Assembly: GCA_015663065.1 (NCBI GenBank)
Contig: DQSX01000192.1
Coordinates: forward strand, 1-34,328
Source of the DNA: Sulfurovum sp.
GTDB lineage: Bacteria; Campylobacterota; Campylobacteria; Campylobacterales; Sulfurovaceae
Direction: 5' to 3'
Length of the DNA stretch: 34,328 bases
In this document: positions 9,818 through 28,168 of the stretch, piece by piece
Numbering within the stretch: the first letter of the stretch is position 1
How the letters are laid out: every line of letters begins with the position of its first letter
Notes under the pieces: generated by a model
Database searches by the model: none
Seen by the model: only the letters and a program-made list of their open reading frames with translations
What the model was told of the DNA's origin: nothing
Position numbers and translations under genes: made by a program

Positions 9818-10570
9818 TCAATTTTCAATAAAAATATATTCATCCCCAGCACTATATGATGACAAATTTAATCTTAGGTTGTGATTTACAAGTATTGCAG
9901 GAGTTACAATAGATAAACGAAATGGTAGCAATGCAGGTGAATTTACAAAGTCTCCTACTGTACTTTTTCCTTCCCTTGTTGCCAATAGTGTAGCCTCGCA
10001 TAACAAAGCTATTGCATCATCATCCATTACCTCTTTGGTATTACCCTGTGCATAGCATCCCTTATCATCAGTCTCTTTTAGAACTCCCCAATAGACAAAC
10101 GCTCTAATAACATACTTCGCATATCGTCCAATGGTGTCACGGTCACCATAGTGCTCTTTGAGCCTAGAGATGATCTGTTTTTGTGTCACCTGGTCTTGTA
10201 AATTGAGCAGTCTTCCTGTTTGAACAGCCGTGTTATACCAAAACGGGTAAGCTGCGCATAGCATTGCCCAATGCATTACGTTAGCCAGATCAGGTTTGTC
10301 TTTTATAAGACTAAGCGCATCATCTCTAAGCGGTAAGATCTCTTTTGCCGGTGTCACCCATATATTCATGATGTTATTGACGGCAAAGGAACGGGTATTC
10401 TTGCTTCTCTCTCCTACTGATCCATCACCTTTACGCTCAGATAGATACTCATGGAGCTCCGCTCTAATTGATTTCGCATCCAAGCCTGACAGTAGAAGAT
10501 TGACAGCCTTGTCCAGCCATTCAGTTCTAATCGCCTGTTTGATGCCTATTGTTTCATGTCGTTTACTCAA
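9818..10570 (-). CDS. brxA: BREX-3 protein BrxA
   Basis: The 250-aa protein fits the BrxA (DUF1819) family in length, position and pattern: an N-terminal helix with WLDKAVNLLLSG, then RSFAVNNIMNIW, a central HWAMLCAAYPFWYNTA, and a winged-helix stretch ending YVIRAFVYWGVLKET. BrxA is a small helical DNA-binding component required or supportive for BREX defence in studied systems. In type 3 loci it is the last core gene, as here. Its start overlaps the pglZ stop by 4 nt (ATGA), so translation is coupled. It is about 50 aa longer than the typical type 1 BrxA, consistent with the type 3 form. Confidence 0.85.
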   Translation of the reverse strand: MSKRHETIGIKQAIRTEWLDKAVNLLLSGLDAKSIRAELHEYLSERKGDGSVGERSKNTRSFAVNNIMNIWVTPAKEILPLRDDALSLIKDKPDLANVMHWAMLCAAYPFWYNTAVQTGRLLNLQDQVTQKQIISRLKEHYGDRDTIGRYAKYVIRAFVYWGVLKETDDKGCYAQGNTKEVMDDDAIALLCEATLLATREGKSTVGDFVNSPALLPFRLSIVTPAILVNHNLRLNLSSYSAGDEYIFIEN

Positions 10571-12525
10571 TGTGTTCTCCGCTCAAATTTTATAAATGGT
10601 ACGATAACTTCTTCGATCGATGTGCCACCATGCCCAACAACACTGTCGCCTTCTCGAATAAATGCATAATCTTGTTCTGCTATCAGAGGAAAATACTCAG
10701 ACGGTAACGCAGCTGAATTCCATGGTTTTGAAAAAGAGAACTGATCTCCTACCCGATCACGTAACTCTTTGGTCGGATAAATGCGAACACGCTCTCCACG
10801 TGTCTCAGCAATTGCACCTTCTGAAGGTCTTCCTTTTCCCTGACATTCGATATTCCCGTGGTCTGAAGTCAGCCACACTTCAAAACCTCGATCTAAAAGT
10901 CCATCTACCATACTCTCCAAATAACCTTGCTCTACCCACTGTTTTACTTGGTTATGCATACCTGCAGCACCCAACTCCATACCATGCATAATATCATCTA
11001 CTGTATTAATAACAAGTCCAAGGGCTTTTGTTTTTCCTGGTCTAATCAACTCATCCAAGTCAGAGCTAACATCACCTTTACCAAGACTTTTCTTGTACTC
11101 TATCTGCATTTTTGTCAAGTTGTGATCTTCCCAAAATTGCTGCCAAAGTTTTGGTTCTTTACTTGTAGTGTTGATACTATCAGGAAAATACTTAGGTATT
11201 TTTCCTGAAAAGATCGCCTGTCTCGATACCGAAGTCAATGTTGGTACCCAGGCAAAGGATGCTCCCTCCCGGATAACTAAGTCAGAACGTCTTTCCTCCA
11301 ATACATTACGTATTGTCACCCATTGATCCATCGCTAAACCGTCTGCAACTATGAGTGCTATTTTAGCATTATTGTCATTTTCAAGCTCACGTGATAATCG
11401 TCTTGGAATATGATGTACCATTGCGGTATGCATAGGTGGTATATTTGTCAAACTCATATAGTGTTTATCAAGCCAGTCAGAAAATACTCTGTTTAATTTG
11501 TTTGAGAACTCCCTGTAACGTCTCTTGTCACTATTGACCTCTGTATGGATCATGGCACTTAGATTTGCCCATTTTGATGCATAGGAGAGCCATTCATCAT
11601 AGCTTGACTCTATTCCAGGCAACTCTTTTTCCAGCAGCGTATACAGACGATCAGTACGTTCAGCATTATCTTCATCCCTTATGCCACAGCGAGCCCAGTC
11701 TGATCTGCTTAAATTCATCCCCGGCATTGTGATTGGTCGAAGCTTACCCTCTACAAAAAGATTGTCAATATACACTAAAATATCATCATGTCCAAAAGGT
11801 ACTTCTTTTGAATCTTTTCCGCCATAAGATACAGGTGTTTTCTCTTTGACTTTCCCATTGCTGATCTCATCGAGGTAATGTGGCCATTCATCTTGCAGGA
11901 AACTATAAAATCTTTCTGTATCACCGATGATCATCTCCAAAGGCCATTCTTTGAGCTCGGGGTTTTTTTGAAGTTCTCTAATGAGGTACTTTTGTAACTC
12001 ATCTGGAATATCAAGATGACTGTAATGACAACACAGCAGACATTTCAATAAGCTCACTTTATCTTGTATCAGCCCCGTAGTAATCTCAAATATATGACGT
12101 AAGATAAAATCCATTGTTTTTTTATCCCCCATGACACCACTGCTTTGTTTTTCTTGTACATTGTAAAGTTTGTCAAAATATCTCTTATCCAACTGGTTTA
12201 CAATAGGGTAGCTTAGCCGAGGAAAGAGTGCTCCAAGATTAAAAGACAGATGTCGTGATTGCTGTAATATATCAAATGGTAAATCATCTAACTCTTCTTG
12301 ATGTACCAAAACGATCAACTCATTGCTGTCAGGATCTCGATATTGGGATTCATAGGTATATCTAAACTCAGTAGCTCCTTCATACTCAAGCAGGTCAAAT
12401 CCTCTCTCTTGAAGTGCAATTTGCAACTTCTCTTCAGAAAGAAGATAGTCAGGGTCGGAAACAAATGTGAGTTTATTAACCTCCGGTACCAACTCCGCCA
12501 ATATTTCTTCTCGCCAATTACGCAT
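10567..12525 (-). CDS. pglZ: BREX-3 phosphatase-domain protein PglZ
   Basis: This is the hallmark BREX protein with an alkaline-phosphatase superfamily core in its C-terminal half. Residues (numbered from the TTG at 12543) are D401 (LIVADGLAMDQW), the nucleophile region T435 (VPTLTSVSR), D516/H520 (NTVDDIMH), D561-H562 (TSDHGNIE) and H638 (GHGGTSIEEVIVPF). These form a two-metal site. I place the start at the ATG at 12525, which has GGAG 6 nt upstream, giving 652 aa. The upstream TTG is possible. The gene overlaps brxHII by 8 nt and brxA by 4 nt. In BREX, PglZ is essential for defence and methylation and binds other core subunits. Confidence 0.93.
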   Translation of the reverse strand: MRNWREEILAELVPEVNKLTFVSDPDYLLSEEKLQIALQERGFDLLEYEGATEFRYTYESQYRDPDSNELIVLVHQEELDDLPFDILQQSRHLSFNLGALFPRLSYPIVNQLDKRYFDKLYNVQEKQSSGVMGDKKTMDFILRHIFEITTGLIQDKVSLLKCLLCCHYSHLDIPDELQKYLIRELQKNPELKEWPLEMIIGDTERFYSFLQDEWPHYLDEISNGKVKEKTPVSYGGKDSKEVPFGHDDILVYIDNLFVEGKLRPITMPGMNLSRSDWARCGIRDEDNAERTDRLYTLLEKELPGIESSYDEWLSYASKWANLSAMIHTEVNSDKRRYREFSNKLNRVFSDWLDKHYMSLTNIPPMHTAMVHHIPRRLSRELENDNNAKIALIVADGLAMDQWVTIRNVLEERRSDLVIREGASFAWVPTLTSVSRQAIFSGKIPKYFPDSINTTSKEPKLWQQFWEDHNLTKMQIEYKKSLGKGDVSSDLDELIRPGKTKALGLVINTVDDIMHGMELGAAGMHNQVKQWVEQGYLESMVDGLLDRGFEVWLTSDHGNIECQGKGRPSEGAIAETRGERVRIYPTKELRDRVGDQFSFSKPWNSAALPSEYFPLIAEQDYAFIREGDSVVGHGGTSIEEVIVPFIKFERRTH

Positions 12526-15382
12526 TTGCAACTCCAGCTTCAATTTTCATAATGATCAAAGGCTTAATGTCAGGGACAATCTGTCTTAACGCATTGAGTT
12601 CATCTTCCCATATCTTTTTTTCGTTATCAAGCTTTTTAAGCCGGTAATTCTTTACCTCTTCCAGTCCCAGTTTCATAATGGCTTTCTGTCGTGTTTGAAA
12701 AGCATGATCTCCTCGATCTTTCTCTTTCTCTAACGCATTCAAATGATGGCTCTGGAGTGTTTTATAGGTATCATATCCCACTTCTTTGGCCTCACTAAGA
12801 ACATTGGCATGAATCAATTCTGTTTCGTCATCTGTAATGGAACCTATCATCTTTACGCTTGCAGTCTGAAGCACATCCCAAATGTGTCGTGCCGTTGGTA
12901 AGAATAGTTTGCCTTCATCGGAAATAAACAGTGTTATAAAGTCCCTTTTTGTTGAAGAAACTCTGACATATTTAGAAGAAAAGAGGTTGGTTTTTAAATC
13001 GATTTCATACAGTCCCCAATAGCCGGAAATGTTATGAGGTAAATCCTCTATTTGTACTATAGGGATAAGTTGACTATCGGTGACTTGAGGTAAGTTTTTT
13101 GTCAGCCCACGCAATTTATCATTTTCAAGGTTGAGGAAATTGGTATTATTATAGTGAAAGGCATCTTGAATATTGAAGACAACTTTTTTATGTAAAGTAT
13201 CATCTGGCCACTTCAGCTCCCACCAATGCTGTTTTCGTGTGACTTGTCCACCATAGGCTTCAATATAGGAAGTTGTCATGCGTTCTACCCAGTGAGGAAG
13301 TGGATGGGTTCTTAATTTTTTAACTGCACTTGGATCATGTTCATCTGAAATAGTATAGATCTCAGACTCGTTACGGATCGCTTCAATATCATGTTTCATC
13401 TGGATTAGGTTTGACTCTACAGTTTGCTCAATAGCATCCGGATCAAGGATGGCAGAAGTAAATATCTCTTCAAATATCTCACCAGCCTGTGCAGAGTCCA
13501 GTACATCCCCTGTTTTGTCAATACCAAATTCATCATAAATGATCTTCAACTTCTCTTCGAGTACCTCAAGGACACGAAACTCTACACTCTCTTCAAATAC
13601 AAAGTTAATGGCTCTAACGATATGCGCTTGACCAATACGGTCGACTCGTCCGATGCGCTGTTCAAGACGCATAGGGTTCCAGGGAATATCATAATTTATA
13701 ACAACATGACAAAACTGTAAGTTAAGTCCTTCACCTCCGGCATCGGTTGAGACAAGCACTCTTGTCTTATCGGCAAATGCATTTTGTGAAGCTTGACGCT
13801 CTTCCATACTCATAGAGCCATTGAGATAAGCCACAGAGATACCTCGTGATTCAAGCAGCTCTATAAGCATCTTTTGTGTTGGTACAAATTCTGTAAAGAT
13901 CAGGATCTTCAGTTCTGGATCATTCTCCTCTTTTTGAAGATCAAAGATCGTTTCTATGAGTGCTTCTGCTTTGGCATCTATTCCTGATGCTTCACATTGT
14001 TTGGCTAGTTCAAGCAGGCTTTCTACTTCACTTACTTCATGCTTGACTGCTTGCATATGTGACTGCAAGAGTTCATCAAGCTGTTCTTGTCCATCCATAT
14101 CATAAAACTCTTCATCAGATACATTTATACGTTCAATCCCCTCAACACTATCAGAAGTTAATGCTTCAAGTCTACGCTGCAAAGTAGTTCTGATCGCTCG
14201 CGTACTGGAAACAACTAATCTTTGCATCAAAACCATGAGAAACCCGATATGTCGTTTCTTGTCTATGATGGCTTGATTGTAGCCTAGTCGAATATACTCA
14301 GTCACAGCTTCATACAACTCTTTTTGCAAAGCTTGTTTTGCCTGCCATTTCACAGGAAGCATTTGTGTAACCCTTGGCTTAAAGAGTGGATTTCCGTCAC
14401 CATCAATGGCTTTTCGCTTCTCTGTTCTTATGGTGTATTCAGCTACTCTCTCTTTTGTGATGCTCTCTTCATCCAAAAATGTTTCACTATCGAGCAGGCT
14501 CATCAATCGGTAAAAGGCATCTCTCTTCCCTTGATGTGGTGTCGCTGAAAGCAGTAACATATAGGGCGCTGCTTCTGCAAGACCTCGACCTAGTTTGTGA
14601 CGAGCTACCTGTTCGCTACTGCCTCCTAGACGATGTGCTTCATCTACGATCACGAGATCCCAACCAGCAGTTATCAGATCTTCATAACGATCAGCATTGT
14701 AAGCAGCGATTCTTTCGTCACTCCATCCTCGTCGTTTATCTAGTGGTTTAACAGAGTCCAGTGTGACAATGACTTGATCAAATACAGACCAGGGATTTGG
14801 ACTATGCGATCCATGGGCAGACGCAATGCGCTTAAGTGAGCGGATGTCCTCACCTAAGACCAGCTGAAACTCTTCATTAAAATGTGTCTTCATCTCACTG
14901 ACCCACTGTGTTGCTATGCTTTTTGGTGCGATGACAAGTATACGGCGAACAAGACCTCTTAGCTTTAGCTCACGAAGGATAAGACCGGCTTCTATGGTTT
15001 TTCCAAGTCCAACTTCATCTGCAACAAGATAACGAACCTGCTCTTTGGAGATCGCTTTTTTGAGTGCTGAAACTTGATGAGGAAGGAGAATAACATTAGA
15101 CTCAATAGGCGCAAGAAGTACCTGGTCATCATTGAGATCACCGCTATTTTCTACAGCCTGTGCGATCTTGGCTGCCGAAGAGATGTAGAGGATCTTGCTA
15201 ACTTCTTTTTCTGCATCTATATCTATCTCAAGGTCTCTAAGGCTATCACACGGTACTTTAACAACAGTATCACTATCTGGTAGCCAAATATGGCAAATGG
15301 TTTGACCCCATAGAGTTTGTGTATCCAGTATTTTGCAAGGGCTATTGTAGGTTGTGCTGTATTGCCAATTACTATTCACCAA
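12518..15382 (-). CDS. brxHII: BREX-3 helicase BrxHII (SNF2/HepA-like)
   Basis: The 954-aa protein is a superfamily 2 helicase/translocase: ADEVGLGKTIEAGL (Walker A, 121-134), DEAH box (VIVDEAHRL, 247-250), LLLSATPHQGK (motif III, about 277-286), and the C-terminal RecA lobe with DAGGEGLNLQ and EQRIGRVDRIGQ. The remainder (about 640-954) is helical and ends in a coiled region rich in Lys/Glu. It is the type 3-specific BREX helicase and is expected to act on DNA in the cytoplasm together with PglXI and PglZ. No ATG start is seen near the 5' end; TTG (15382) or GTG (15379) overlaps the stop of the UvrD-like gene, so BrxHII translation depends on the guest Gabija gene in front of it. Confidence 0.9.
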   Translation of the reverse strand: MVNSNWQYSTTYNSPCKILDTQTLWGQTICHIWLPDSDTVVKVPCDSLRDLEIDIDAEKEVSKILYISSAAKIAQAVENSGDLNDDQVLLAPIESNVILLPHQVSALKKAISKEQVRYLVADEVGLGKTIEAGLILRELKLRGLVRRILVIAPKSIATQWVSEMKTHFNEEFQLVLGEDIRSLKRIASAHGSHSPNPWSVFDQVIVTLDSVKPLDKRRGWSDERIAAYNADRYEDLITAGWDLVIVDEAHRLGGSSEQVARHKLGRGLAEAAPYMLLLSATPHQGKRDAFYRLMSLLDSETFLDEESITKERVAEYTIRTEKRKAIDGDGNPLFKPRVTQMLPVKWQAKQALQKELYEAVTEYIRLGYNQAIIDKKRHIGFLMVLMQRLVVSSTRAIRTTLQRRLEALTSDSVEGIERINVSDEEFYDMDGQEQLDELLQSHMQAVKHEVSEVESLLELAKQCEASGIDAKAEALIETIFDLQKEENDPELKILIFTEFVPTQKMLIELLESRGISVAYLNGSMSMEERQASQNAFADKTRVLVSTDAGGEGLNLQFCHVVINYDIPWNPMRLEQRIGRVDRIGQAHIVRAINFVFEESVEFRVLEVLEEKLKIIYDEFGIDKTGDVLDSAQAGEIFEEIFTSAILDPDAIEQTVESNLIQMKHDIEAIRNESEIYTISDEHDPSAVKKLRTHPLPHWVERMTTSYIEAYGGQVTRKQHWWELKWPDDTLHKKVVFNIQDAFHYNNTNFLNLENDKLRGLTKNLPQVTDSQLIPIVQIEDLPHNISGYWGLYEIDLKTNLFSSKYVRVSSTKRDFITLFISDEGKLFLPTARHIWDVLQTASVKMIGSITDDETELIHANVLSEAKEVGYDTYKTLQSHHLNALEKEKDRGDHAFQTRQKAIMKLGLEEVKNYRLKKLDNEKKIWEDELNALRQIVPDIKPLIIMKIEAGVANA

Positions 15383-17252
15383 TTAGTCCCATCTCTCTTA
15401 GGAATCTGGATGGTTTCTTATTCCACCCAAAATATTTTTTAGCATAACTTAAATACAAATTCTTTGAAGACCTGGTAATTGCAACAAAGCAGTTTCTTCG
15501 CTCTTCTTGAATTGACTTTTTACCGTTTTTGATTGCGAAATAGGTTGGGAACTGCTCCTCTACCAATCCTACAATATAGACATTTTCAAATTCCATTCCT
15601 TTGGCTGTATGTACCGTTTGTAATCTCACACAATCTCTTGAAAGAGCTTTTGATTTTGGTGACAAATCCATCTCTTGAAGAAATATATGAAGTGCAACTG
15701 AATCTCCATACTCTCGTATAATTTGATTTGAAATACGATACCAATTTTCTTTGTCCTCACCATAGTCTGGATAGAGGTCGTCATCGTCTTCCTGCATATT
15801 TAATGAGTCAAAATACTCGAAAGACTGATCTATAAATGATCTAAAATTCAATGTATCACACAATTCCTTTTCACCTATTTCACAAAATGGTTGTAGCATA
15901 TCACTTTCTGTAGCCAACATGAAAAATGCTCTAAGTGCAGTTATCTCTTCTACACTTGACTTTGTATAAACATCTTCTGCAGATATAGTTATGCCATTGA
16001 GTTTTGTCACAACAGAGCAGAGCTTATTTAGGATACTTCTTGAACTAGGTGTATTCGCAAGTTTTAAAGAAAAGTAAATAGTCTGTGTCAATGGGCTTGT
16101 AAAGTCTTGTTGCTTACTGACAATCTCTGCCATTACTCCATTGTCTTTCATCGTTTCTTTTACTTGAGTGAGAAGCTTATTGCTACGAGCAATGACCAGG
16201 CACGAGTCACGTTGTTTGTTGGGAATAGTCATAACTTTTTCCATTAATCCTTGAATTTCATCTTCAAAAGTATCAAAGGCTTCAACTTGTACTGCTCCTG
16301 TCATTTCATTATGGGATATTCCCGGAATTCTCGATTGTAGTCGGTCACTATTATGCTGAATAAGCTTATTGGCAATTTCTACAACTTCCTTTGGACAACG
16401 GTAGTTTTCTGGAAGTTGAACTACATATGGTTCGTAATCCTTTTTAAGCTCTTCAAGCCTCTTAGGGTCTGCACCATTCCACTGGAAAATAATTTGGTCA
16501 TCATCTGCAACAACAAAAAGATTTGCAGATTTTGGTTCAGCAATAAGTTTAAGGATTTTATATTGTGCAAGATTTGTATCTTGAAACTCATCTACACAAA
16601 TATATTTATAGACCGTCTTTACTTGTCTGGCAACACGTGGCATAGTCTCAAGAAGTTTTCTTGAAAAGTACAACATGGATCCAAAATCCAATTGATTGCC
16701 TTCAATAAGTTCATTTATATAACCATCAAATATGGCTTTTAAGCTTTCATATTGTTCTTTACGATCAGACTTAAAATGTTTCGATAACTCCTTGCTATTA
16801 ATACCACGAGTGAACATTATATCAATCTTTTTTAGGGCATCTTCTGGGTTACTTATTTCTATTTCACTTTTATCTTGTAGTTCTTTGAGGATTGCAACAC
16901 GATCTTTATCATCTGTAATAACAGAAAAGTCTGGCTGTAAACCTAGATGGCTTCCATGTTGTCGCAAGAGATCAGTACAGAATGAATGAAAAGTACGTAA
17001 CTGAACCCTGTGATTATCATCACCTATGATATTCTGAATACGATTTTGCATCTCATTCGCTGCCTTAACAGTAAAGGTCAGACCAAGAATTCGGAAATTC
17101 TCATCAAGACTATTTTTAATCAAATTAGCTATTCGAATTGTCAATACAGCTGTTTTACCAGATCCAGGTCCAGCCAAAACTAATATAGGACCATTTTCCC
17201 ATTGTACTGCTTGACGCTGGTTTTCATTGAGATCTTTTATTACAATATTCAT
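15372..17252 (-). CDS. gajB: Gabija-like UvrD/PcrA helicase GajB
   Basis: The 626-aa superfamily 1A helicase has LAGPGSGKTAVLT (Walker A, about 26-38), VDEFQDTN (motif II, about 220), LPENYRCP (motif IV region), LQTVHTAKGMEFENVYIVG (motif V) and VAITRSSKNLYLSYA (motif VI). It starts with the usual LNENQRQAV Q-motif. Its ATG overlaps the stop of the OLD nuclease by 1 nt (TAATG). OLD plus UvrD is the defining pair of Gabija. In studied Gabija the helicase-like GajB binds DNA ends, activates the GajA nuclease and contributes to phage resistance. This copy is somewhat longer than the classical GajB of about 490 aa, so a variant subtype or a generic class 2 OLD-associated helicase remains possible. 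Confidence 0.85.
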   Translation of the reverse strand: MNIVIKDLNENQRQAVQWENGPILVLAGPGSGKTAVLTIRIANLIKNSLDENFRILGLTFTVKAANEMQNRIQNIIGDDNHRVQLRTFHSFCTDLLRQHGSHLGLQPDFSVITDDKDRVAILKELQDKSEIEISNPEDALKKIDIMFTRGINSKELSKHFKSDRKEQYESLKAIFDGYINELIEGNQLDFGSMLYFSRKLLETMPRVARQVKTVYKYICVDEFQDTNLAQYKILKLIAEPKSANLFVVADDDQIIFQWNGADPKRLEELKKDYEPYVVQLPENYRCPKEVVEIANKLIQHNSDRLQSRIPGISHNEMTGAVQVEAFDTFEDEIQGLMEKVMTIPNKQRDSCLVIARSNKLLTQVKETMKDNGVMAEIVSKQQDFTSPLTQTIYFSLKLANTPSSRSILNKLCSVVTKLNGITISAEDVYTKSSVEEITALRAFFMLATESDMLQPFCEIGEKELCDTLNFRSFIDQSFEYFDSLNMQEDDDDLYPDYGEDKENWYRISNQIIREYGDSVALHIFLQEMDLSPKSKALSRDCVRLQTVHTAKGMEFENVYIVGLVEEQFPTYFAIKNGKKSIQEERRNCFVAITRSSKNLYLSYAKKYFGWNKKPSRFLREMGLIGE

Positions 17253-18961
17253 TAATTGTCCCCTACTGTTTCTGTCAACTTAGATAATATGTCTTTTATT
17301 TCGGGAGGTACTCCTTCTGCACCTATTTCTTTCATAAGAAATATGGATTCAAGTGCAGCAGCAGGCTTAGAAAAGCCACGAGTCTTATTGATGATTTTAT
17401 ATACCTGATGCCAGTATTCTGAAGTACCTTCTTCTTCCGTAAGTTCTGCTACTTTCTGTGCTCCAACACCATCTCTATATGGCTGACCATATCCACTACA
17501 ACAGAGAAGAATATCGATATTTGGATGTGTCAATTTTGATATATACCTGGCTTCATCTCTATCAGCTAAAAGTTCTTTAGCTGCATCAATATATTTCTGA
17601 CCACCATCATCAGCATCAGCAATAAGGTGCCAATTAATACCAAGGGCATCTGCCACTTTAATAAAAATTCCTGGACCACCTGCTTGACTACATTCAACTA
17701 GTCTTATCCCATGCCTATGAAGATTTATACCTAATATATCTGCACACTCTGTAAAAATAGAGACATCTGTTTCTCCTTCTACCAAGAGCCAATATTTCGC
17801 AAATAACAGTTCCCCTCGATTTCTACGAACGTGATGATTGAATTTTCTTAGCTCTTCACTTGTAAGTAGTCCTTCAGGAATAGAATGACAACTAATTGAT
17901 GTATCTTCTCGATTTAGTCGTCTTAATTTTTCAACAGGTACTTCTGACAATATGTCTCCTGAATGTGTAGCTATAATTTTTTGACCAGGAAGATCTTTTA
18001 GTAGATGCCATACTGCACGTGTTGCATTTGGATGCAAGTGTGCTTCAGGTTCTTCAATTGCAATAATAGCCTCAGCATGTTGGTCAGTATCAGCTTGAAG
18101 ACGTTTTTTTAGATATGCACTAAACAGTAAAAGTACAGAAAGGCTTTGTGTACCTTCCCCATGACTGCGAATAGGAATTTTTGCATTAGAATTAGTAAGC
18201 AGATTTACTTCGGTATAACGAAGTGATTTATATATATCCGAAGGTATTGGATCAACAGAGACTGGTTCGGTATGTCCTACTGAAACTAAGTCAGAAATAC
18301 GTTTTACTTCATCTGTAATATCATTAAAGCTTGAATGGGCATCTATAATCTTTTGATTTACTGTAAATAGTTCTGCTTCCAATGCTTGTTTTGTTAAATC
18401 ATCAATATCTTTATTTTTAATGAACGATGACCAGTATGTGGCCTGCCCATGAAATTCATCCTTAGCAGCCCTTAAAGCACTTTGAAAAAAGAATGGACGT
18501 AGTTTACGCAATTCTTTAATCATATTTTGTTTATTTGGTATTTCATTATCAGCAGCATCAAGAAATGACCAATCTTGAGTGAGTTCTGCATTCCCCAGAT
18601 CATATTTTCCTGTCAATCGTAGTTTAATTTCTCCGTACTCTGCTCCAACAATTACATCATTTAGTGCTTGAGTAATATATTCTGGCCATAAATGTTCTTC
18701 GGATTCTAAAAAACTAAAAGTAAAAATAATTGGATCACTTGATGCAACATCCGGATGTTCATTATCACGATAAAAATCGTATTGAGAAAAATTGCATGTT
18801 TTGTTTGACTTGATAGTATCTAAGCCAAATCGAAGTGCCTCAAGAATAGAGGTTTTACCACAGTTGTTTTCTCCAATAATAACTGTTATCTCTCTATCTA
18901 ATTCTATTTCAAGTTCAGTTATTCCTCGGAATTTTTCTATTTTTACCTTATTCAGTCGCAC
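17252..18961 (-). CDS. gajA: Gabija-like OLD-family nuclease GajA (ABC ATPase plus TOPRIM)
   Basis: The 569-aa protein has an ABC ATPase domain with Walker A GENNCGKTS (30-38), a signature-like SHGEGTQS (266-273), Walker B IIAIEEPEAHLHP (299-311) and an H-loop (ATHSGD, 331-336). A C-terminal TOPRIM nuclease follows, with VEGETD (E395) and ADADDGG (D449/D451). The size equals GajA (about 578 aa). In the known system GajA tetramers nick specific DNA and are inhibited by nucleotides until phage replication depletes them. The start is GTG with GAGGAG 7 nt upstream, only 2 nt after the pglXI stop. Adjacent gajB supports the call. All catalytic motifs look intact. Confidence 0.87.
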   Translation of the reverse strand: MRLNKVKIEKFRGITELEIELDREITVIIGENNCGKTSILEALRFGLDTIKSNKTCNFSQYDFYRDNEHPDVASSDPIIFTFSFLESEEHLWPEYITQALNDVIVGAEYGEIKLRLTGKYDLGNAELTQDWSFLDAADNEIPNKQNMIKELRKLRPFFFQSALRAAKDEFHGQATYWSSFIKNKDIDDLTKQALEAELFTVNQKIIDAHSSFNDITDEVKRISDLVSVGHTEPVSVDPIPSDIYKSLRYTEVNLLTNSNAKIPIRSHGEGTQSLSVLLLFSAYLKKRLQADTDQHAEAIIAIEEPEAHLHPNATRAVWHLLKDLPGQKIIATHSGDILSEVPVEKLRRLNREDTSISCHSIPEGLLTSEELRKFNHHVRRNRGELLFAKYWLLVEGETDVSIFTECADILGINLHRHGIRLVECSQAGGPGIFIKVADALGINWHLIADADDGGQKYIDAAKELLADRDEARYISKLTHPNIDILLCCSGYGQPYRDGVGAQKVAELTEEEGTSEYWHQVYKIINKTRGFSKPAAALESIFLMKEIGAEGVPPEIKDILSKLTETVGDN

Positions 18962-18963: not shown

Positions 18964-21732
18964 TTAGTCTCCTCTTCTCGTAATCGACTGATCATACCAC
19001 ATCAACAATTTCGGATCTTCTTCCAGCACATTATTTGGTATCTTTTCGGATATGGCTATGATGGTTCCGTAGTCTCTCTCTTGCCATGCTTTTTTAAAGC
19101 CTGCTCTTACTGCTTCTATTCTAAAGAGTTTGAGTTTCTTCTTCTCTGTTTTGTAAGCCTCGAACTCTTTTAATAGTGACTTTTCACGAACTTTTTCAAG
19201 GTCACCTGCTTTATTAGGGTCTGGAACGTACCAGCGGTTGTTGGCTTTCTCCATAAGTCCCGGATCTTCCTTATCAAGCTTTCGCATATCTTTCCAATTA
19301 GAAGATAGGTAGGTATGAATTTGTTCTGGTACCTTTGTAGTGCCATCATACATTAGAAAGTTCTCTTCGAGCAGTGTACTAAGTTCAAGCATCTTCTCAT
19401 TCTTACTCCAGCCACTGGTCTCTTGCATAAACTGTGGATTAAGGTCTTGAAAGGTTTGTGGTTTTTGCTTGAGTTGTTGTCGAAGCCATGCAATGGCTGA
19501 TGACTCATCAGAGACAAAGAGAGATACTTGTACCAAATCTTTAACTCGCATCTTTTTTTTGTCATATTCAGCTACTTGTTCAGGCAAAAAGAACATTCCA
19601 TCTCTTTCTGCAAAGCGTTGAGCTAAACCTAGTTGAAAATTTTGTGAAGAGATGGGTATCATATAACCTTTTTGAACATAATAAGAAATAACCTGATCAT
19701 AAAGAATCCGTGAATCACGTTCAGGAATAATATCCAGTTTCCCGACAGATCCTTTTGTAATGGGCAAATAGCTCAAATGTGTACGAATAAAATCCCAAAC
19801 ACCATCTTCGGTTTGTGCTTCTTGCTGAAAACGATCTTCAAAGCCACCATTGGGTTTATATACAGAGATGACAAGGTCTTGTTTTACTGCTGTCTTTGTT
19901 GTTACAGCTTTAAAGCTTCCTTGTTGTTTATCTAGCGCTGAAACATTCGCTACAATAAATCCTGCATCATTAAGTGCTGTTTGTATGCTGTTCCATACAG
20001 AGGCCTTTGTATTGGAAAACTCAACAGTCATCCATCGTCCTGGCTTTAGAATTTTATAATCTTCTTTAAAGCTTGCTGCCATTAAGTCTCTATACTCGTT
20101 TAACCCTTTGTTCTGAGAACTGTTTACTATAGCTTCTGTATTATTATTTGTTTTTACCCTCAACCACTCTTCCCAAAGCGAACTGAGTTCTGAATAGTTT
20201 AAATTTGCTCCAAATGGAGGATCAGTAAATATATAATCTGCAGAAAAATTTGTTTCTTCTGTCATGGATTGTGTTGAAACTAGCGAAGGAACCTCGATAT
20301 ATTTAAAAGCTGTTATGAGCTTTTTTAACTTATTTACATATGCAATAAATATATTTGATTCAGAGATTTGAGAGCCAACATAATATGTACCACTCAATGG
20401 GTTGTAAGGGAAAGAAACTCCTGGTCTGTAACGATTTAACCTACTCAGGTTTATTAGCTGAGAGTTAAACATTAATAGAGATTGTTTAGATTTGCATCTC
20501 TGACGTATGGCTGCCAATAACCATAGGTTCCGTTTACTATAAAAATGATGGACATGAGTTAGTCCTATTTTGTCATTTCTACGAGTTTCTTTGCCTTCTA
20601 TCATTCTGTTTGTAGGAAACCAATATGGTATTGTGCTTTTATCAATTTTTTCTATTACCTCAAGATCAAACTTATCAGGTATTTTGTCGTAACGCTTTTT
20701 CCCAACAAGATAATTGATTTTTACTGGAATTTGTTTAGCTTGCTTAATTGTTTCATCAATTGATGAATCATAAATAGTTGTCCAAGCCCTGTCAAGCTTG
20801 CGCTTAATAAGCTCTGCATTACAATGAGGGCAAGGAAAGGGATCAAGGACCTTACCTGCATCTTCATCTACTGCTGATTCCCAAAAGATCACTTCTTGTG
20901 TACAGTCAGGGCAAATAAATACATCTGACCAAACTGTATAATTTATTTTTCCTATACTACCATCAGTATGCATCGTATCATACATCCAGCCATACTCATT
21001 TTCAACTTCTTCAAGAATTCGTTTAGCTTCTTTCTCAAATTTATTTATATCTATAGGTGTATTATAATTGTAAGATATAAAAGTAGCAACGGGAGAAAGA
21101 TCATTAATAATAGCACGTCGAATACCTAGTTTGGAGAATGGTACCCAAGTTGTTTTACCTTCTTCATCATACTGTTCTTGTAAAATAGTATTATCTTCCT
21201 GAACCTTGTAACCCAAAGACGATACTGTATCCCTATCTCCACACATTTGTGCAGCTACCCCAGTCATCCCTGTTCCGGCAAAGCCATCAAAAACAATATC
21301 ACCAGGTTCGGTATAATGTAATATGTAGCGCATAATTGCTTTATGTGGTACTTTTGTATGATAAGTATGAGCATTATAAATAGGATCACCTTTCCCTTCG
21401 CTAACATCAGCAGCGAAAGGTTCTCGATGGTAGTGATAATCAACTGGTTTTGTAGGTTTGTCAGCTTCCCATTCAGTAATAAACTCAGCTATCCAAGGGT
21501 TTGGACAGGCAGTATAGTATGGAGGGTCAGAAAGCTCAAGAATGTCTCCATCGGTACCTATAGGGAAACCTTCTACATTGCGAAAGTCAGGATCTTTGAG
21601 TTTTTCCCTTAGTTGTTCTTTAAAGTAACCTCGTCTTGCTTCATCATTTTCAAACTCCATACCAAGGCATATTACCGATCCTGATGATTTTTCTTCATAA
21701 TGCAGATCTAATTTTGGATTATCTTTTGCCAT
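18964..21732 (-). CDS. pglXI: BREX-3 DNA methyltransferase PglXI
   Basis: The 922-aa protein is a class I methyltransferase with an inserted zinc ribbon. The SAM motif FDGFAGTGMTGVAA is at about 148-161. A catalytic-type motif TDPPFGANLNYSE is at 503-515, and a second DPPY motif (LSDPPYYTACPNPW) is near the N terminus at 67-80. The zinc ribbon has C274/C277 and C301/C304. This order matches the type 3 PglXI family and differs from type 1 PglX. It is expected to methylate a non-palindromic adenine or cytosine motif on host DNA to mark self. The ATG has AAGGAAAG 4 nt upstream. It is framed on both sides by guest genes, a striking arrangement. The C-terminal 200 aa are lysine-rich and helical. 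Confidence 0.9.
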   Translation of the reverse strand: MAKDNPKLDLHYEEKSSGSVICLGMEFENDEARRGYFKEQLREKLKDPDFRNVEGFPIGTDGDILELSDPPYYTACPNPWIAEFITEWEADKPTKPVDYHYHREPFAADVSEGKGDPIYNAHTYHTKVPHKAIMRYILHYTEPGDIVFDGFAGTGMTGVAAQMCGDRDTVSSLGYKVQEDNTILQEQYDEEGKTTWVPFSKLGIRRAIINDLSPVATFISYNYNTPIDINKFEKEAKRILEEVENEYGWMYDTMHTDGSIGKINYTVWSDVFICPDCTQEVIFWESAVDEDAGKVLDPFPCPHCNAELIKRKLDRAWTTIYDSSIDETIKQAKQIPVKINYLVGKKRYDKIPDKFDLEVIEKIDKSTIPYWFPTNRMIEGKETRRNDKIGLTHVHHFYSKRNLWLLAAIRQRCKSKQSLLMFNSQLINLSRLNRYRPGVSFPYNPLSGTYYVGSQISESNIFIAYVNKLKKLITAFKYIEVPSLVSTQSMTEETNFSADYIFTDPPFGANLNYSELSSLWEEWLRVKTNNNTEAIVNSSQNKGLNEYRDLMAASFKEDYKILKPGRWMTVEFSNTKASVWNSIQTALNDAGFIVANVSALDKQQGSFKAVTTKTAVKQDLVISVYKPNGGFEDRFQQEAQTEDGVWDFIRTHLSYLPITKGSVGKLDIIPERDSRILYDQVISYYVQKGYMIPISSQNFQLGLAQRFAERDGMFFLPEQVAEYDKKKMRVKDLVQVSLFVSDESSAIAWLRQQLKQKPQTFQDLNPQFMQETSGWSKNEKMLELSTLLEENFLMYDGTTKVPEQIHTYLSSNWKDMRKLDKEDPGLMEKANNRWYVPDPNKAGDLEKVREKSLLKEFEAYKTEKKKLKLFRIEAVRAGFKKAWQERDYGTIIAISEKIPNNVLEEDPKLLMWYDQSITRRGD

Positions 21733-21746: not shown

Positions 21747-22175
21747 TTACAGTAGATTCGCATACGTTGGATTGTCCTTGATGCGTTCTTTCAGTTTGTC
21801 TTTGACTTCTTCCGAGACAATCGGATTGAGAAGCAATGCTTTGTGTGCGAGATAAACAGTCCCAATAAGCCGCTCAGCGACTACATCAGTAATGTTTTCA
21901 TTTCGTGCTAATTGGATATGTATATCTTTGTCGCCTATCCCGACAAGCTTGAAATAGTCAGATTCAGATAAAGGTTCGGCAGCGATCTGATAGAGAGCAT
22001 TGAAATCTTTCTGTTCGATGAGGGTATCAATATCTTCATTGGCTGCTATTGCTTCTGCTTGCTCTGCCTGTGTATCTTTTTGTTCATATTCAGCCTCTGC
22101 ATTCTCTTCTAACCGCTGGTTGTAATCTGTAGAAGCAAAATATTCCGTATCACCTGTTTTATCATCTAAACTCAT
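21747..22175 (-). CDS. Small acidic repeat-like protein, guest gene in the BREX operon
   Basis: The 142-aa protein starts with an acidic, disordered-looking stretch (about 1-50) and continues with helical repeats (IHIQLARNENITDVVAERLI, then AHKALLLNPIVSEEVKDKL) that resemble leucine-rich-variant or HEAT-like repeats. Such repeats usually mediate protein contacts. It overlaps the AlbA_2 gene by 4 nt (ATGA) and is followed by pglXI after 14 nt, so it is translated with both. It is not a core BREX-3 gene that I recognise. It is probably a partner of the AlbA_2/HATPase protein, but this is inferred from pairing alone. Confidence 0.6.
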   Translation of the reverse strand: MSLDDKTGDTEYFASTDYNQRLEENAEAEYEQKDTQAEQAEAIAANEDIDTLIEQKDFNALYQIAAEPLSESDYFKLVGIGDKDIHIQLARNENITDVVAERLIGTVYLAHKALLLNPIVSEEVKDKLKERIKDNPTYANLL

Positions 22176-23971
22176 CTTCTATCTCCCTTTAATTTATCTG
22201 CTAACCTGTCACCTTTGTCTGTCAATCGATATTTTTGCTTACTGCTTGTGGGCTTGTCCGGAATTGTCATCTCTATAATGCCTTCTTCCATTGACGGAAT
22301 CAAATATGTATCTCTAAAATGTACTTCATGTTTAAGCCCTAATGCATCCTGGATCTCTTTGCGTTTCATGTCCTTATGCATCACAGCCATAAGTTTTTGG
22401 ACTTCATCGGTAACTACCTCGGTAACTTCATCGGTACTACCACGGTACTTGTCCGGTACTTGTCCGGCACTTAGTTCCGACTTGGCACGATCTTCCACAA
22501 AATGACCATATCTTTTTTGCATTGCTTCAGTCAATTCATACAGATTATCATCCAGTGGTTGCAATAGCACCTGCACAACTAATCTATCGATGATCTCTCT
22601 TGCTTGAGCTTTGGTAGAAGCAGTCAATTTACGTACATCAAGCAGAGAGATCCTTTCATTTTCACAGGCATAAGCAAAAACATCTGCATCTTGAGCTGAA
22701 AGATGCACACCGATCTCTGACTGGAAACGCTTTTGCATATCATTGATCAAAAGTTCTTTAAGCAGTACCAACTCAAAATCTTTACTCGCTTTGTTGTTAA
22801 CCATAATAGGAGGTACATTGCCAAGCTCATGCCAGTTACGGAAGATCGCACGAATACCACTACCCGCCTGGTCACTCATACCAATACGACGGAAAGCACC
22901 AACGATCATAGGGTTTCTTACCTCTTTTTCTGTCGGATCCAACAACTCTGACTCTGTGGCGAAGGCATCACCCGGATTCCAAAAACGAGTCTTATCAGTG
23001 AAGAACTGGATGACCGCTTTACGAGTATGGTCACCGTAGTCTCTATGGATAAGAAGGTTGATCGCAGCTTCTCTAAAGGCTACATAGTCAGCAGGATCAT
23101 CATCACGACGCAATGTCTTTGGATCAATCTTGAAAGGACGATCAGAGAGTCGCATATACTTTTCAACAAGCCCTAGCCAAGTCTGAATAATGTTCTCTTC
23201 AAAAACAACTCTATCTCCCCAACGCTCTTCAGGAGTCCAATCATCTGCTTTAGAGTCGATACGCTGATAGTCAAGTAAAGGCTGTGGTAATATTTGCCGG
23301 ACATAGCGGCTTTTACCAAAAAGTAAAATAGCTGCACGAGTGGCATAGAGTTTTTCTCCTTGCTCTACAACATAGTTCCATTCTATTAAAAAGTCCAAAT
23401 CACTTAGTGCTTCATGTTGTCCAGGTCTTTTTTGCTTAAAGCGGTCTCGATACCAACGAAGAGTACCTTCATCAAAAAATGATTCAGACGGGATATTTTC
23501 AACAATCTCACTGTCATATCGAGTGGTAGCTGAGTCACGAACAAAACGTTCAATCTCTGTTTGTGTACACTGCTCATCTCCTGAACCTTTTCGAATGTAA
23601 CTTTGTCGAAGATCCCCTTTGAGATAAACAGGCTTTTCATTTCGAGGAGACTCTGGAATATAAAAAACAAGCATTGTCTTGCCCTCATGCTCAATGATCT
23701 CTTCTTTAACCGTAATAATACGATTCATCTTTCCGCCCGATCGCAGCGTACTTAAAAAATCATTCTGAACCTTATCTACCTCTTCAACACCAACAATAGA
23801 AAGCTGCCCATTACTATCTTTAATACCAAAGACCAACCAACCACCTTGTGTATTGGCAAAGGCGGAGACGCTTTTGTAGGCATCATCAGGCACACCACGG
23901 CTGGCTTTCTTGCACTCAAAGTCATTCCATTCATACTTCTCTATAAGTTCTAGTAACTTCTCTTTTGTCAT
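22172..23971 (-). CDS. AlbA_2 (Schlafen-like) and HATPase_c_4 domain protein
   Basis: The 599-aa protein has an N-terminal AlbA_2 domain (about 10-130: WNDFECKKASRG, then AFANTQGGWLVFGIKD, SYIRKGSG). A GHKL-type ATPase domain follows (HATPase_c_4, about 300-400: AINLLIHRDYGDHTR, FWNPGD, EVRNPMIVGAFRRIG, AGSGIR). The C-terminal winged-helix region resembles the Fic-associated/RecG-like end (KEIQDALGLKH, YRLTDKGDRLADKL). Proteins of this architecture are widespread regulators or nucleic-acid-binding proteins and occur in defence islands; the biochemical role is not established. It starts 1 nt after the brxC stop and overlaps the 142-aa gene, so it is fully embedded in the BREX operon. A defence or regulatory module nested in BREX is inferred. 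Confidence 0.8.
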   Translation of the reverse strand: MTKEKLLELIEKYEWNDFECKKASRGVPDDAYKSVSAFANTQGGWLVFGIKDSNGQLSIVGVEEVDKVQNDFLSTLRSGGKMNRIITVKEEIIEHEGKTMLVFYIPESPRNEKPVYLKGDLRQSYIRKGSGDEQCTQTEIERFVRDSATTRYDSEIVENIPSESFFDEGTLRWYRDRFKQKRPGQHEALSDLDFLIEWNYVVEQGEKLYATRAAILLFGKSRYVRQILPQPLLDYQRIDSKADDWTPEERWGDRVVFEENIIQTWLGLVEKYMRLSDRPFKIDPKTLRRDDDPADYVAFREAAINLLIHRDYGDHTRKAVIQFFTDKTRFWNPGDAFATESELLDPTEKEVRNPMIVGAFRRIGMSDQAGSGIRAIFRNWHELGNVPPIMVNNKASKDFELVLLKELLINDMQKRFQSEIGVHLSAQDADVFAYACENERISLLDVRKLTASTKAQAREIIDRLVVQVLLQPLDDNLYELTEAMQKRYGHFVEDRAKSELSAGQVPDKYRGSTDEVTEVVTDEVQKLMAVMHKDMKRKEIQDALGLKHEVHFRDTYLIPSMEEGIIEMTIPDKPTSSKQKYRLTDKGDRLADKLKGDRR

Positions 23972-23972
23972 A

Positions 23973-26900
23973 CTATTCTATTACCAAACGTACTTTGGCA
24001 GGATCTTGCCCTTTGGTTAGATTATCAATATAATCATCAAAGCGTTTTTTGATCTCATCCGGTGTTGCTGCACCGCCACCAGACTGCATAGCTTTTTGAA
24101 TATCACCCTGCTTGATGCTTACTTTAACTAAGCCCGAAAGTACCTCTTTGATAGATTGTACAAAGAGTGTATCTACTGTACCTGGAAGTTCTTTAGAAGC
24201 GACAAAATCATTAATCATTGCCTTTTCGTCATCCCCAAGAAGTTCAATATTTGCCTGTGTCATCGGGTCTTCAAGGTTGTTGATAATAGTCTGCGTCCAG
24301 CTCTCCAACAATCCATCTAACTCAATGTCAACTTGAGTAAGTTGCTGACTACTGGATGTTGTGATAGGCTCTACAGATGGTCTAAAGTTACAATGTGGAC
24401 AAATAGGTGATGTCTCAAGCTCCTGTTCACTTATATGGAAACAGCTTTTAATATCTGCAAGTTTATCTTGAAGGTCACTCAGTTGCTGTCGTGGCATAAG
24501 GTCGATGTTTTCCAGGAACTGAAGCGTATGCAATCGGCTATCAGAGAGTAAATGTGCTTTTTGCCTATCATCATTTGCATTGAGCCTTGCTTTGGTATGC
24601 AGTGACATATAGATCTGTATATAGTCTTTCTTTAAGCCCTTAAGTTTAGATGTGATCTCATTTGACTTTGCTTTTAATGTATCGACATCAATATTTTGAA
24701 GCGCATTAAGGACATCTTCTTTGGTTGCCTTGAGACTTTCAGTCCATTTGTCATCAGCAGGAAGAACTGCTTCAGCAGTAGAGAGCCAACTAGCAAGCTC
24801 TGAATGTATGGCAACAAAATTCTTTAGTGTAGAAAGGGATACTAAATGCGAAAGAGCAACATCATGCTGCTTTATTTCCTCTGGTGACAAACGAAAGTTT
24901 TTAAGTTTCCCTGGTGTTGAATAGACCTGAAGTCCCTCAAAAAAGTTTTTACCACTTTCAATTTGCTCCTGTGAATTATCCATACCGCTTGCTGCAATAA
25001 GGTCTATGCCCCAAAAACTTAATCCTTCACGGATATTTTGCTGTGCCATTACCAGATCTTTTACGACCTTACCGATAGCATGCTGAAGTGTTTGAACAGG
25101 CTCGTCTTTACCTTGCATGATAAGCTGTGCATTTCCCGGTGGTAAGCCAAGTGTTTCAAAGAGAGCTTTTAATGCAGGAAGGTTCCACTCTTTTGGCTGT
25201 TCAAGATGTTTGAAGTTAATAAGCTCGTCCATACTCGTAGCAGCAAGAGACTGCAATGCTGTAGCATCAAACTTTTTTCCAGTAACCGCTAAAACAATGT
25301 CACCGGAATAGACAAGTGAAGCCAAGATCACCACTGTCCACTCAGGTTCGAGTCTCATCGATGCAGGGTTCATGTATTCTAAACCATGATCATCTTGTAA
25401 GATCTCGTTATGGTTGACTACCTGTCCATGTCCCTTCTTTTTGACAAGATCGAGTACATATTTGGCATATTTGGAAGCATAAGGATCCAACTTTGCACCG
25501 TCGAGAAGTTCTAAAGCATCAAGAACAGCTGTGGCCTGTTTGGTTCTGTTCTGCCCGGCTATGGTTCTAAGTACATCCTGAGCTGCTTGTGCACGGTTAT
25601 TGCCTGTAATTTTAATGGAAAATGTTGGATACTCCAGTGCACTCTCTTCAAAGTGAGTTTCCAAACAAATACCGGAGATCGTATTGATCAAATCACGGAA
25701 GTTAATGGTATCATGACTGGAGAGACCAGCCAATTCACGAATATTTTTATCTTTCCCCCACGCTATCAATGATTTGGTACGCCCCTGGTAAGTTACCTCA
25801 AAAGCATCTCCCATATGTGCTTGCAGCCATTTGACCAATTCTCTTATAAAGCCTTGTGCCTTAGATTCGTAAGTTGATTTTGCATGTCCTGAAGAGGTCT
25901 GAGCCAGATCCAATGCAGCCGCATAACTTTTCAAAATGGTATCAAAAGCTTCATCGTTTCCAGAAAGTCGGAAGAAGACTTCATCACTCTTCTTTTCATC
26001 TTTAAAACGAGTGGTATCAAAAGGCTGTACAAAATAGAGGTAGAAATCACGAGGTGGTATGACTGTGGAACGCTCATTTGGTGCACCGAAGAAAAGGTAT
26101 CCAGTACGTGCAGCTTTACGCTGAAGCCATTCAAGTTCATGTTCCCATATCTTATAGCCTGTCACATAGGTTGCTGTATCTTGGTACTCCATAACACGTT
26201 TGAGACCTTCATAATAATAGCGATCAAGCTGGGCATTGTCTAAGGTTTCAGCACGGCGGTCGATTAGAGCATCGAAATCATCTGTCTTCTGAAGATCCAG
26301 ATAGTATTGACCATTATCCGGATTGGAACTGATAAATTGACCGCTGACTGTCTTGTGTATCTCTCTCAGTACAGTTTCTACATGTACAAGCAGATCGTTA
26401 TCTACCTCATCACCACCAAGCTCAGCGATCATTGGATCATACAGACTTAGCGTGTCTCGTAATTCTTGTGCAGTCGGTCCAAGTTTAGCATGAATATCAC
26501 CAGTGGTGAGACGATGTACTGAGAGTGCATCGATGATACGAAGTGCCATTGGTTTGTATTGTGGTCGGGTAAAGGCACTGTTAATTCTGGACTCCAAAAC
26601 ATTGCTGCATTCGATGACATCACGAATCTCAGGAATCGTTCTAAAAGAGGGGTTGCCAGTGAGTGTTTTCCAATAACTGTCATAGGCAATCAAACCAGGA
26701 GCATCTGTCGGCACCTCTTCATTAAGCACTTTTTTCATAGAGTTGGAAATCGATTTTAGAATTTCACGCTTTTCTACGGCCGTCACACGCTCAAAGGTGT
26801 CAATATAATCAGGGTGTATCGGAAAGAGACGAACAAACTCATCCATTCGCTCATTCATGTTGGAATAGAACCTGGCATAAGGTGTTAAGTGTTCTCGTAT

Positions 26901-27707
26901 TTTCACCAACTGATCAGGACTCTTTTTTAGAAGTCTTTGCGCAACAACATACTTGACATCATTTCTCGCTATCAGCACTTGTTCAAATCGGTCTTTTACT
27001 CGGCGAAGGCTATCGGCAACAAAAGCAAATCTTGGGCTGTCAAAGATAGCTTCCTGGACACCGGCAATAAGTCTAAAACGGAGATCTTTACATACTTCAC
27101 CCACTTCTCTTAAAAAATTGAGATCCAAAATAAGCTCTTGATCTTTTCTTGTTCGCAGATAATCGAGGAGTTCGTCAACAACAAGGAGTAATCCCTGATC
27201 AGGATAAACTTGACTGAAAGCATCCATCATATCTTCAAAAGCACCTTTATGGCTCGAGATAGTATCAGCATCAGGGAATGTATAATCAACACCCATTTGT
27301 TCAAGACCCTCTTCAAGTTGTGCCACCAAAATATCTCTAAGCGACATGGTAGTAGCCCCGATCTCCATTCGGATGACCTTGAATTTTCCTGCGATCTGAG
27401 TGGCAGCATCAGCAACAGCATCATTACTAACTTCTCCGAGTAAATTCTTCTCTTCTGCCAAACTTGAAATAACAGACATCAAGTGTGACTTACCGGTTCC
27501 ATAATTACCAACTATCAATAAGCCTTTATTGTCCATCGGCACATCAAACTGTAGTTGCGGGATAATAAGATTGACAAGACGATCACCCATTTCATCAGAG
27601 ATAACATAGTTTTTAACCAGTTTCTTTGCAGCCAACGATTCATCTGCATCTCGTAATTGTACAACCGTCTCAATCGGATCAAACTCAATTAACTCACTGT
27701 ATTTCAT
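23973..27707 (-). CDS. brxC: BREX-3 ATPase BrxC (PglY-like)
   Basis: The 1244-aa AAA+ ATPase has Walker [14 protein letters not shown] (66-78) and Walker [13 protein letters not shown] (173-184). Motifs around [11 protein letters not shown] and [11 protein letters not shown] continue the AAA core. The C-terminal part has a CPHC pair (C1103/C1106) that may be half of a zinc knuckle, and a helical tail. Large BrxC/PglY ATPases are core in all BREX types and are expected to hydrolyse ATP to remodel the defence complex on DNA. It overlaps the brxF stop by 4 nt. It is the largest gene of the operon, and its length agrees with type 3 BrxC. Confidence 0.92.
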
Positions 27708-28168
27708 ATCTCAACCTTGTCTTTGTTTATTTCTATCATCAATAAATCCTTGCTATCATAACTTCGATACTCCGGGTGCCCTTGTTCTGCATATATAAGC
27801 TTGCCGTCTCTTACTTGGCCATTCCAAAATGCAATAATAGTTTGATTCCTGGAAAGAGACTCAAGTAGGCGCAAGGGATCCTGTCCCAATTCTACATCGA
27901 AGAGAATCTCCACCTGATCCAAAAGAATAGTTTTATTAGGTTGGACAACCTCATTCATAGATTTTGAAAGATACAGTTTTCGCTGTCTTGAAGTTTGACT
28001 CAGTAATCGCTTTGAAAGTTCAAGGTTAACATTTACAGCTTCTACATCCAGCCGGGCTGAGATCTCTTTTGCAAGCTGTTCATGATCTGCCTTTTCATCC
28101 ACAAGCAGTATCAAACGATAATACATATCAGCTGAAGTGTTTATTGCATCAAGTATCTTTTTGATCAT
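27704..28168 (-). CDS. brxF: BREX-3 protein BrxF
   Basis: The 154-aa protein matches BrxF, the small P-loop-like protein that opens type 3 BREX loci, in size and position. The expected Walker A region has the degenerate form [15 protein letters not shown] with no GKS/T, while a Walker B-like [13 protein letters not shown] is visible near 79-91. It may bind nucleotide weakly or act as a structural partner of BrxC. Its ATG directly follows the stop of the HTH gene (TAGATG), and it overlaps brxC by 4 nt. Function in type 3 BREX is not well defined. Confidence 0.82.

What the first reader, a model, noticed from the sequence alone, without database searches (positions are those of the whole stretch)
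21747..23971. Second guest module (AlbA_2/HATPase protein plus 142-aa protein) on the other side of pglXI
A 599-aa AlbA_2-HATPase_c_4-winged-helix protein and a 142-aa acidic helical-repeat protein sit between brxC and pglXI, coupled by 1-nt spacing and a 4-nt overlap. They are not core BREX-3 genes. With the Gabija pair on the other flank, pglXI is bracketed by guests, as if the borders of the methyltransferase gene were insertion hot spots. The pair could be an undescribed two-gene defence or control module.
Basis: partly seen in the sequence, partly recalled or inferred. Interest (0 to 1): 0.68.

Follow-up and report, generated by a model that had tools for sequence, protein, structure and literature searches.

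The report
Schlafen-type cargo gene in BREX-3
Beside the DNA-methylating gene of a bacterial anti-phage system (BREX-3) sits a known kind of extra gene, probably a back-up RNA-cutting protein, followed by a small gene found at no other such locus; comparing many loci shows that both sides of the methylation gene are regular parking places for such extras.

Summary
The two genes are real and placed as described. The 599-aa gene (SLFN_AlbA_2, HATPase_c_4, Fic-like_C winged helix) is an optional cargo gene, but not an undescribed one: a 2026 survey (PMC12839542) lists "Schlafen RNase + minimal histidine kinase + wHTH" beside BREX core genes in at least 1017 taxa. I found relatives in 80 genome loci, mostly at brxC|pglXI or pglXI|brxHII, and also in type I restriction-modification loci. 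The 142-aa gene is coding but is not its constant partner: no relative occurs at any other BREX-3 or AlbA locus examined, and the nearest relative of the whole cluster (L005, 75% identical AlbA protein, same Gabija pair) joins AlbA directly to pglXI. The "two-gene module" is therefore not supported. The hot-spot idea is: in loci sampled without reference to AlbA, 35 of 45 junctions flanking pglXI exceed 300 bp, against 4 of 75 other core junctions. Most likely the AlbA protein is a conditional back-up effector (Schlafen-like RNase gated by a GHKL ATPase). Two of three Schlafen catalytic acids are invariant in 36 relatives; the third is D in the window but K or Q in 12. RNase activity is untested.

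The parts
22172..23971 (-). 599-aa AlbA protein: SLFN_AlbA_2 (14-135), HATPase_c_4 (320-393), Fic-like_C winged helix (522-584); cargo gene in the brxC|pglXI slot
   Evidence: 80 relatives in genome contigs; AlphaFold2 pLDDT 85.3; Foldseek best 3lmm, also SLFN14
21747..22175 (-). p142, 142-aa acidic all-helical protein with variant-leucine-rich-repeat-like pattern; lineage-specific extra gene translationally coupled to the AlbA gene
   Evidence: no relative in other BREX-3 loci; single-sequence model only pLDDT 51.9
23973..27707 (-). brxC (left border of the slot)
   Evidence: PADLOC PDLC02482, E=0
18964..21732 (-). pglXI methyltransferase (right border of the slot)
   Evidence: PADLOC PDLC02541, E=0
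27704..28168 (-). brxF, first core gene of the BREX-3 operon
   Evidence: NCBIfam NF033453 E=5.7e-48
15372..18961 (-). gajA and gajB (Gabija) in the second slot, pglXI|brxHII
   Evidence: PADLOC PDLC00094 E=1.1e-252 and PDLC00114 E=2.8e-265; same pair at the same place in L005, L030, L049, L059, L207 and gajA in L012
12518..15382 (-). brxHII
   Evidence: PADLOC PDLC02500 E=0
10567..12543 (-). pglZ
   Evidence: PADLOC PDLC02558 E=2e-261
9818..10570 (-). brxA
   Evidence: PADLOC PDLC02444 E=1.6e-92

Best explanation
The 599-aa gene is one cargo item of a BREX-3 locus that has two cargo slots, one on each side of pglXI. It is most likely a conditional back-up effector: an N-terminal Schlafen (AlbA_2) domain that cuts structured RNA such as tRNA, held off and switched on by a GHKL-type ATPase domain and a C-terminal winged helix that sense failure or inhibition of the BREX machinery or phage nucleic acid, so that an infected cell stops translation. 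Shown: domains, conserved motifs, fold similarity, optional presence, slot positions, occurrence also in type I R-M loci. Inferred: RNase activity, substrate, trigger, abortive outcome. The 142-aa gene is a lineage-specific small helical-repeat protein placed at the tail of this cargo gene; it is not needed by the family. At most it tunes the effector in this lineage.
For: Domains. Profile of 36 relatives matches AlbA_2 structure 2kyy (9e-17), Schlafen 8 (6e-6) and SLFN14 (5e-5); Foldseek of the 85-pLDDT model gives DIP2311/3lmm (1e-24) and SLFN14 (5e-4). E14, E19 and K21 are invariant in 36/36, and E14/E19 align with the Schlafen pair essential in SLFN13 (E205/E210; PMC5862951); window D52 aligns with SLFN13 D248; D or E in 24/36. 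GHKL residues E301, N305, H309, D311, P333-G334-D335, G370 and G372 are invariant. Same architecture beside BREX in at least 1017 taxa, read there as a back-up RNase. A protein with the same two Pfam domains, Photorhabdus TrlG, stops growth in a dominant, inducible way that point and stop mutations relieve (PMC7554251). Optional presence: two Alphaproteobacterial plasmids have the same order around brxF-brxC, with AlbA (L003) and without it (L145).
Against: The third catalytic acid is K or Q in 12 of 36 relatives, so part of the family may not be a Schlafen-type nuclease. Human SLFN5 keeps E205/E210 equivalents yet did not cut tRNA (PMC5862951). Similarity to eukaryotic Schlafens covers only about 45-65 residues. 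A winged helix fits a DNA-binding regulator equally well. No functional data were found for this subfamily.
Confidence: 0.5

Rival explanations
1. The AlbA protein is a transcriptional or local regulator of BREX: AlbA_2 and winged helix bind DNA, the GHKL domain senses a ligand, and it controls expression of brxC/pglXI or dosage of the methyltransferase.
For: C-terminal winged helix (Fic-like_C), with MarR-type repressors among the structural matches; in the BREX-3 and type I R-M cases the gene is beside a methyltransferase gene.
Against: It lies inside the operon, after brxC, not at its head where WYL regulators sit in relatives (L003, L145); some loci of the same type lack it; the Schlafen glutamate pair is invariant, which DNA binding alone does not require.
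Confidence: 0.22
2. The AlbA protein is a dedicated helper of the methyltransferase (methylation licensing or target DNA sensing) and not an effector.
For: Placed in a slot flanking pglXI in 60 of 71 full-length cases, and between hsdR-like and hsdM-like genes in Chlorobiaceae type I loci.
Against: Complete BREX-3 loci without any AlbA gene are common (7 of 26 junctions empty, others filled with unrelated genes). Unrelated defence genes share the same slots, so position does not imply partnership with the methyltransferase.
Confidence: 0.15
3. The pair is a two-gene module in which p142 is the antidote or partner of the AlbA toxin.
For: 4-nt overlap, translational coupling and equal third-position G+C content (34.7 and 35.0%); p142 is small and acidic, as many antitoxins are.
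Against: No p142 relative beside any of the other AlbA genes examined; L005 with a 75% identical AlbA protein has none. Relatives of p142 sit elsewhere (between murC and mutS2; beside a WYL regulator).
Confidence: 0.08
4. p142 is a chance or decaying ORF.
For: No relative at this place anywhere else.
Against: Codon usage equals that of the neighbouring genes and only this frame scores as coding; ATGA overlap; weak but consistent similarity to a family in the same phylum (phmmer E about 1e-6; 8 invariant columns in A2).
Confidence: 0.05

Closest known systems
BREX-associated Schlafen RNase + minimal histidine kinase + wHTH (Rakesh and Krishnan 2026, PMC12839542)
   Same: Domain order, position within or beside BREX core genes, wide distribution; proposed back-up effector
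   Different: That paper gives no slot statistics in the passages I read and no activity data; a 142-aa companion is not mentioned in those passages
Photorhabdus TrlG (PMC7554251)
   Same: AlbA_2 plus HATPase_c_4; dominant, inducible growth block; homologous locus near a type I R-M methyltransferase in a Yersinia plasmid
   Different: Growth restriction by temperature, not phage; direct sequence comparison not made here
Mammalian Schlafen SLFN13/8/14 N-domain
   Same: AlbA_2-type fold with E205/E210/D248-like positions
   Different: Only the AlbA_2 core matches; no GHKL or Fic-like_C match; the third acid varies in the bacterial family
BrxU in type I BREX (Picton 2021, PMC8565348)
   Same: An autonomous defence gene inserted between brxC and pglX
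   Different: BREX type I; BrxU is a GmrSD-type DNA endonuclease
DIP2311, PDB 3lmm
   Same: Best structural match over nearly the whole length (Foldseek 1e-24)
   Different: 17% identity, structural-genomics protein deposited as uncharacterized

Membership tests
BREX-associated Schlafen / histidine-kinase / wHTH effector | SLFN_AlbA_2, then GHKL ATPase, then winged helix in one protein | tested here: met
   Pfam E=1.3e-17, 6.7e-11, 1.5e-24 in that order
BREX-associated Schlafen / histidine-kinase / wHTH effector | Encoded inside or directly beside core BREX genes | tested here: met
   1 nt from brxC in the window; 60 of 71 full-length relatives in a BREX-3 slot
Schlafen RNase | Three-carboxylate active site (SLFN13 E205, E210, D248) | tested here: inconclusive
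   E14 and E19 invariant 36/36; D52 present in the window but D/E in only 24 of 36 relatives
Schlafen RNase | Cleavage of tRNA or rRNA | not testable with these tools
   needs purified protein
BREX-3 core gene | Present in essentially all BREX-3 loci | tested here: not met
   Close family in 3 of 26 and any AlbA_2 protein in 11 of 26 sampled brxC|pglXI junctions
Two-gene defence module (AlbA + p142) | The two genes co-occur in several loci | tested here: not met
   p142 relative in none of the other BREX-3/AlbA loci; absent in L005
Variant leucine-rich-repeat (LRV) proteins, for p142 | Match to a curated LRV model | tested here: not met
   No Pfam match at E<=1 to any LRV model; only a pattern-level similarity to repeat proteins of the phylum
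Gabija (neighbour) | gajA OLD-ATPase/TOPRIM plus gajB UvrD helicase | tested here: met
   PADLOC and Pfam matches

The most novel reading that the evidence does not exclude
The two borders of pglXI are dedicated cargo ports of BREX-3 loci, kept because cargo placed there is co-expressed with, and guards, the methyltransferase machinery: AlbA, Gabija, OLD/TOPRIM and other effectors swap in and out and fire when pglXI or BrxC is inhibited. In this lineage p142 would be a recently recruited repeat-protein adaptor that retunes the AlbA guard.
Probability: 0.2. Interest if true: 0.62.

Novelty: new member of a known kind. Interest (0 to 1): 0.38.

Why it matters
The AlbA gene itself is an instance of a catalogued BREX accessory effector, so it is not a new system. 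The useful gain is the measured rule: in BREX-3, cargo enters almost only at the two borders of the methyltransferase gene (35/45 against 4/75 junctions, Fisher p=7e-17), while brxF-brxC, brxHII-pglZ and pglZ-brxA stay tightly coupled. That makes the two pglXI borders places to look for unknown defence genes (several sampled slots hold proteins without a family), and makes a guard model testable. The same AlbA subfamily beside hsdM-like genes in type I R-M loci suggests cargo exchange between methylation-based systems.

Tried and rejected
A single-sequence AlphaFold2 model of p142 was too poor for a fold search (pLDDT 51.9). A viral-contig scan with the AlbA protein gave no relative; p142 has no match in plasmids and no credible one in the PDB. 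I suspected p142 came from the murC-mutS2 small gene of the host: the host's own murC has no such neighbour. I considered that albA/p142 are compositionally foreign: their third-position G+C (34.7, 35.0%) equals that of the core genes, while pglXI (27.1), gajA (17.5) and gajB (26.5) deviate; low gajA/gajB G+C recurs in L005 but not generally in other loci, so no cassette claim is made. The brxF family search in the window's own phylum found no other BREX-3 locus over the cut-off (1 of 397 genomes, the window's own), so no close comparison inside the phylum was possible. Weak PADLOC hits (Aga_SIR2, PDC-S50) cover single shared domains and were not used.

Full report
Observation. The window carries a BREX-3 locus on the minus strand in the order brxF, brxC, AlbA, p142, pglXI, gajA, gajB, brxHII, pglZ, brxA. 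The 599-aa protein has SLFN_AlbA_2, HATPase_c_4 and a Fic-like_C winged helix, all above Pfam's cut-offs. The 142-aa protein has no family but is coding: only its own frame fits the codon usage of the core genes.

The AlbA gene elsewhere. A scan of one genome for each of 84,980 species returned 80 loci with a relative, up to 75% identical, in many bacterial phyla and in Methanosarcina and Methanosaeta. Mapping the window's genes onto them and classifying full-length cases puts 39 at brxC|pglXI, 21 at pglXI|brxHII and 11 elsewhere. Among those elsewhere, Chlorobiaceae loci hold the gene between a large hsdR-like gene and an hsdM-like gene, followed in L041 and L043 by an hsdS-like gene (L041, L043, L048, L083; assignments by reading the sequences). 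In the protein tree the pglXI|brxHII position needs at least 4 supported changes (quick tree, SH-aLRT only), so the gene has changed place more than once. The gene is thus neither restricted to one place nor to BREX.

How often it is present. To avoid counting only loci found through AlbA, I searched the BrxF family in 369 genomes of the class of L009 (a gammaproteobacterium) and in 385 genomes of the phylum of L013 (Desulfamplus), took up to 20 kb around each hit, and added plasmids found with BrxC. Of 26 brxC|pglXI junctions, 3 hold the close AlbA family, 8 a distant AlbA_2/HATPase protein, 7 are empty (under 100 bp) and 8 hold something else: an ABC-type ATPase with a second gene, Fic plus OLD/TOPRIM, a GHKL ATPase, a Bro-N protein, an HD protein, a 23S rRNA intervening-sequence protein, or no clear gene. 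Two of the three close cases (L199, L208) have contig lengths equal to those of L052 and L039 in the other collection, so they are probably the same contigs, reached independently.

Hot spots. Junctions with more than 300 bp between core genes in this sample: brxF|brxC 1/36, brxC|pglXI 19/26, pglXI|brxHII 16/19, brxHII|pglZ 3/20, pglZ|brxA 0/19. The two pglXI borders together are 35/45 against 4/75 for the rest, Fisher p=7e-17. Loci are related by descent, so the p-value is optimistic, but the variety of occupants argues for many separate insertions. Gabija occupies the pglXI|brxHII slot in the window and in L005, L030, L049, L059 and L207, with gajA also in L012. In type I BREX the gene brxU was described between brxC and pglX (PMC8565348), so this kind of slot is not confined to BREX-3. 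The searched library gave no paper that states the two-slot rule for BREX-3; the library does not hold most subscription journals.

The 142-aa gene. No relative was found in any ORF of the other BREX-3 or AlbA loci (blastp, phmmer and profile). The nearest relative of the whole cluster, L005 (brxC 71%, AlbA 75%, pglXI 72%, gajA 70% identical; the record is labelled a Gracilibacteria metagenome bin), has AlbA and pglXI directly abutting with no p142. Weak relatives exist in the window's phylum: a 105-aa gene between murC and a mutS2-like gene in one genus, 179-183-aa genes beside a WYL regulator in two genomes of the window's family, and 458-470-aa repeat proteins. The shared pattern (K/R)DIxIxLAxxxxL resembles variant leucine-rich repeats, though no curated model matches. 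p142 is best seen as a lineage-specific extra gene.

Mechanism. The N-terminal domain is Schlafen-like by profile and by fold. E14 and E19 are invariant, K21 too; D52 completes a SLFN13-like triad in the window but not in a third of the family. The GHKL ATPase motifs are invariant. The 2026 survey reads this architecture as a back-up RNase, and TrlG of Photorhabdus, with the same two Pfam domains, blocks growth in a dominant, inducible manner. I therefore commit to a conditional growth-stopping effector, with RNase activity, trigger and substrate inferred. A regulator and a methyltransferase helper remain as rivals.

Novelty. The AlbA protein is a new member of a catalogued kind. The two-slot rule, the shared occurrence in type I R-M loci and the lineage-specific p142 are modest additions. 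Interest is moderate.

Noticed in passing
window 987-3085, 28969-34058: The BREX-3 locus lies between a phage terminase pair (large 1432-2676, small 2669-3085) and an Ant-type antirepressor (28969-29508), an ATPase/helicase-like gene (29715-30830) and a tyrosine integrase (32847-34058), so it may ride on a prophage or phage-satellite-like element.
   Followed up: partly
window 15372-21732: pglXI, gajA and gajB have lower third-position G+C (27, 17.5, 26.5%) than the other BREX genes (about 34%), while albA and p142 match the core; pglXI-gajAB may have been acquired or exchanged separately.
   Followed up: partly
L041, L043, L048, L083: The AlbA subfamily sits between hsdR-like and hsdM-like genes in Chlorobiaceae type I restriction-modification loci; L043 and L083 have a second AlbA_2-like gene beside it.
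   Followed up: partly
L189, L190, L195, L197, L198, L199, L202, L210, L212, L220: pglXI|brxHII slots of sampled BREX-3 loci hold recurring genes not identified here, for example a 335-348/874-887-aa gene pair in L198, L199 and L210, a 340-344/168-169-aa ATPase-like pair in L190 and L197, and a 449-465-aa protein in L195, L212 and L220.
   Followed up: no
L018: One locus carries two AlbA-family genes, one upstream of pglXI and one in the pglXI|brxHII slot.
   Followed up: no
L149 (G313) 7236-10375 and L229 (G1156): A p142 relative lies in a small conserved neighbourhood with a WYL regulator, a gamma-glutamylcyclotransferase-like gene and a gene that looks like a restriction-endonuclease-type protein; in L149 also an LRV-like repeat protein.
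   Followed up: no
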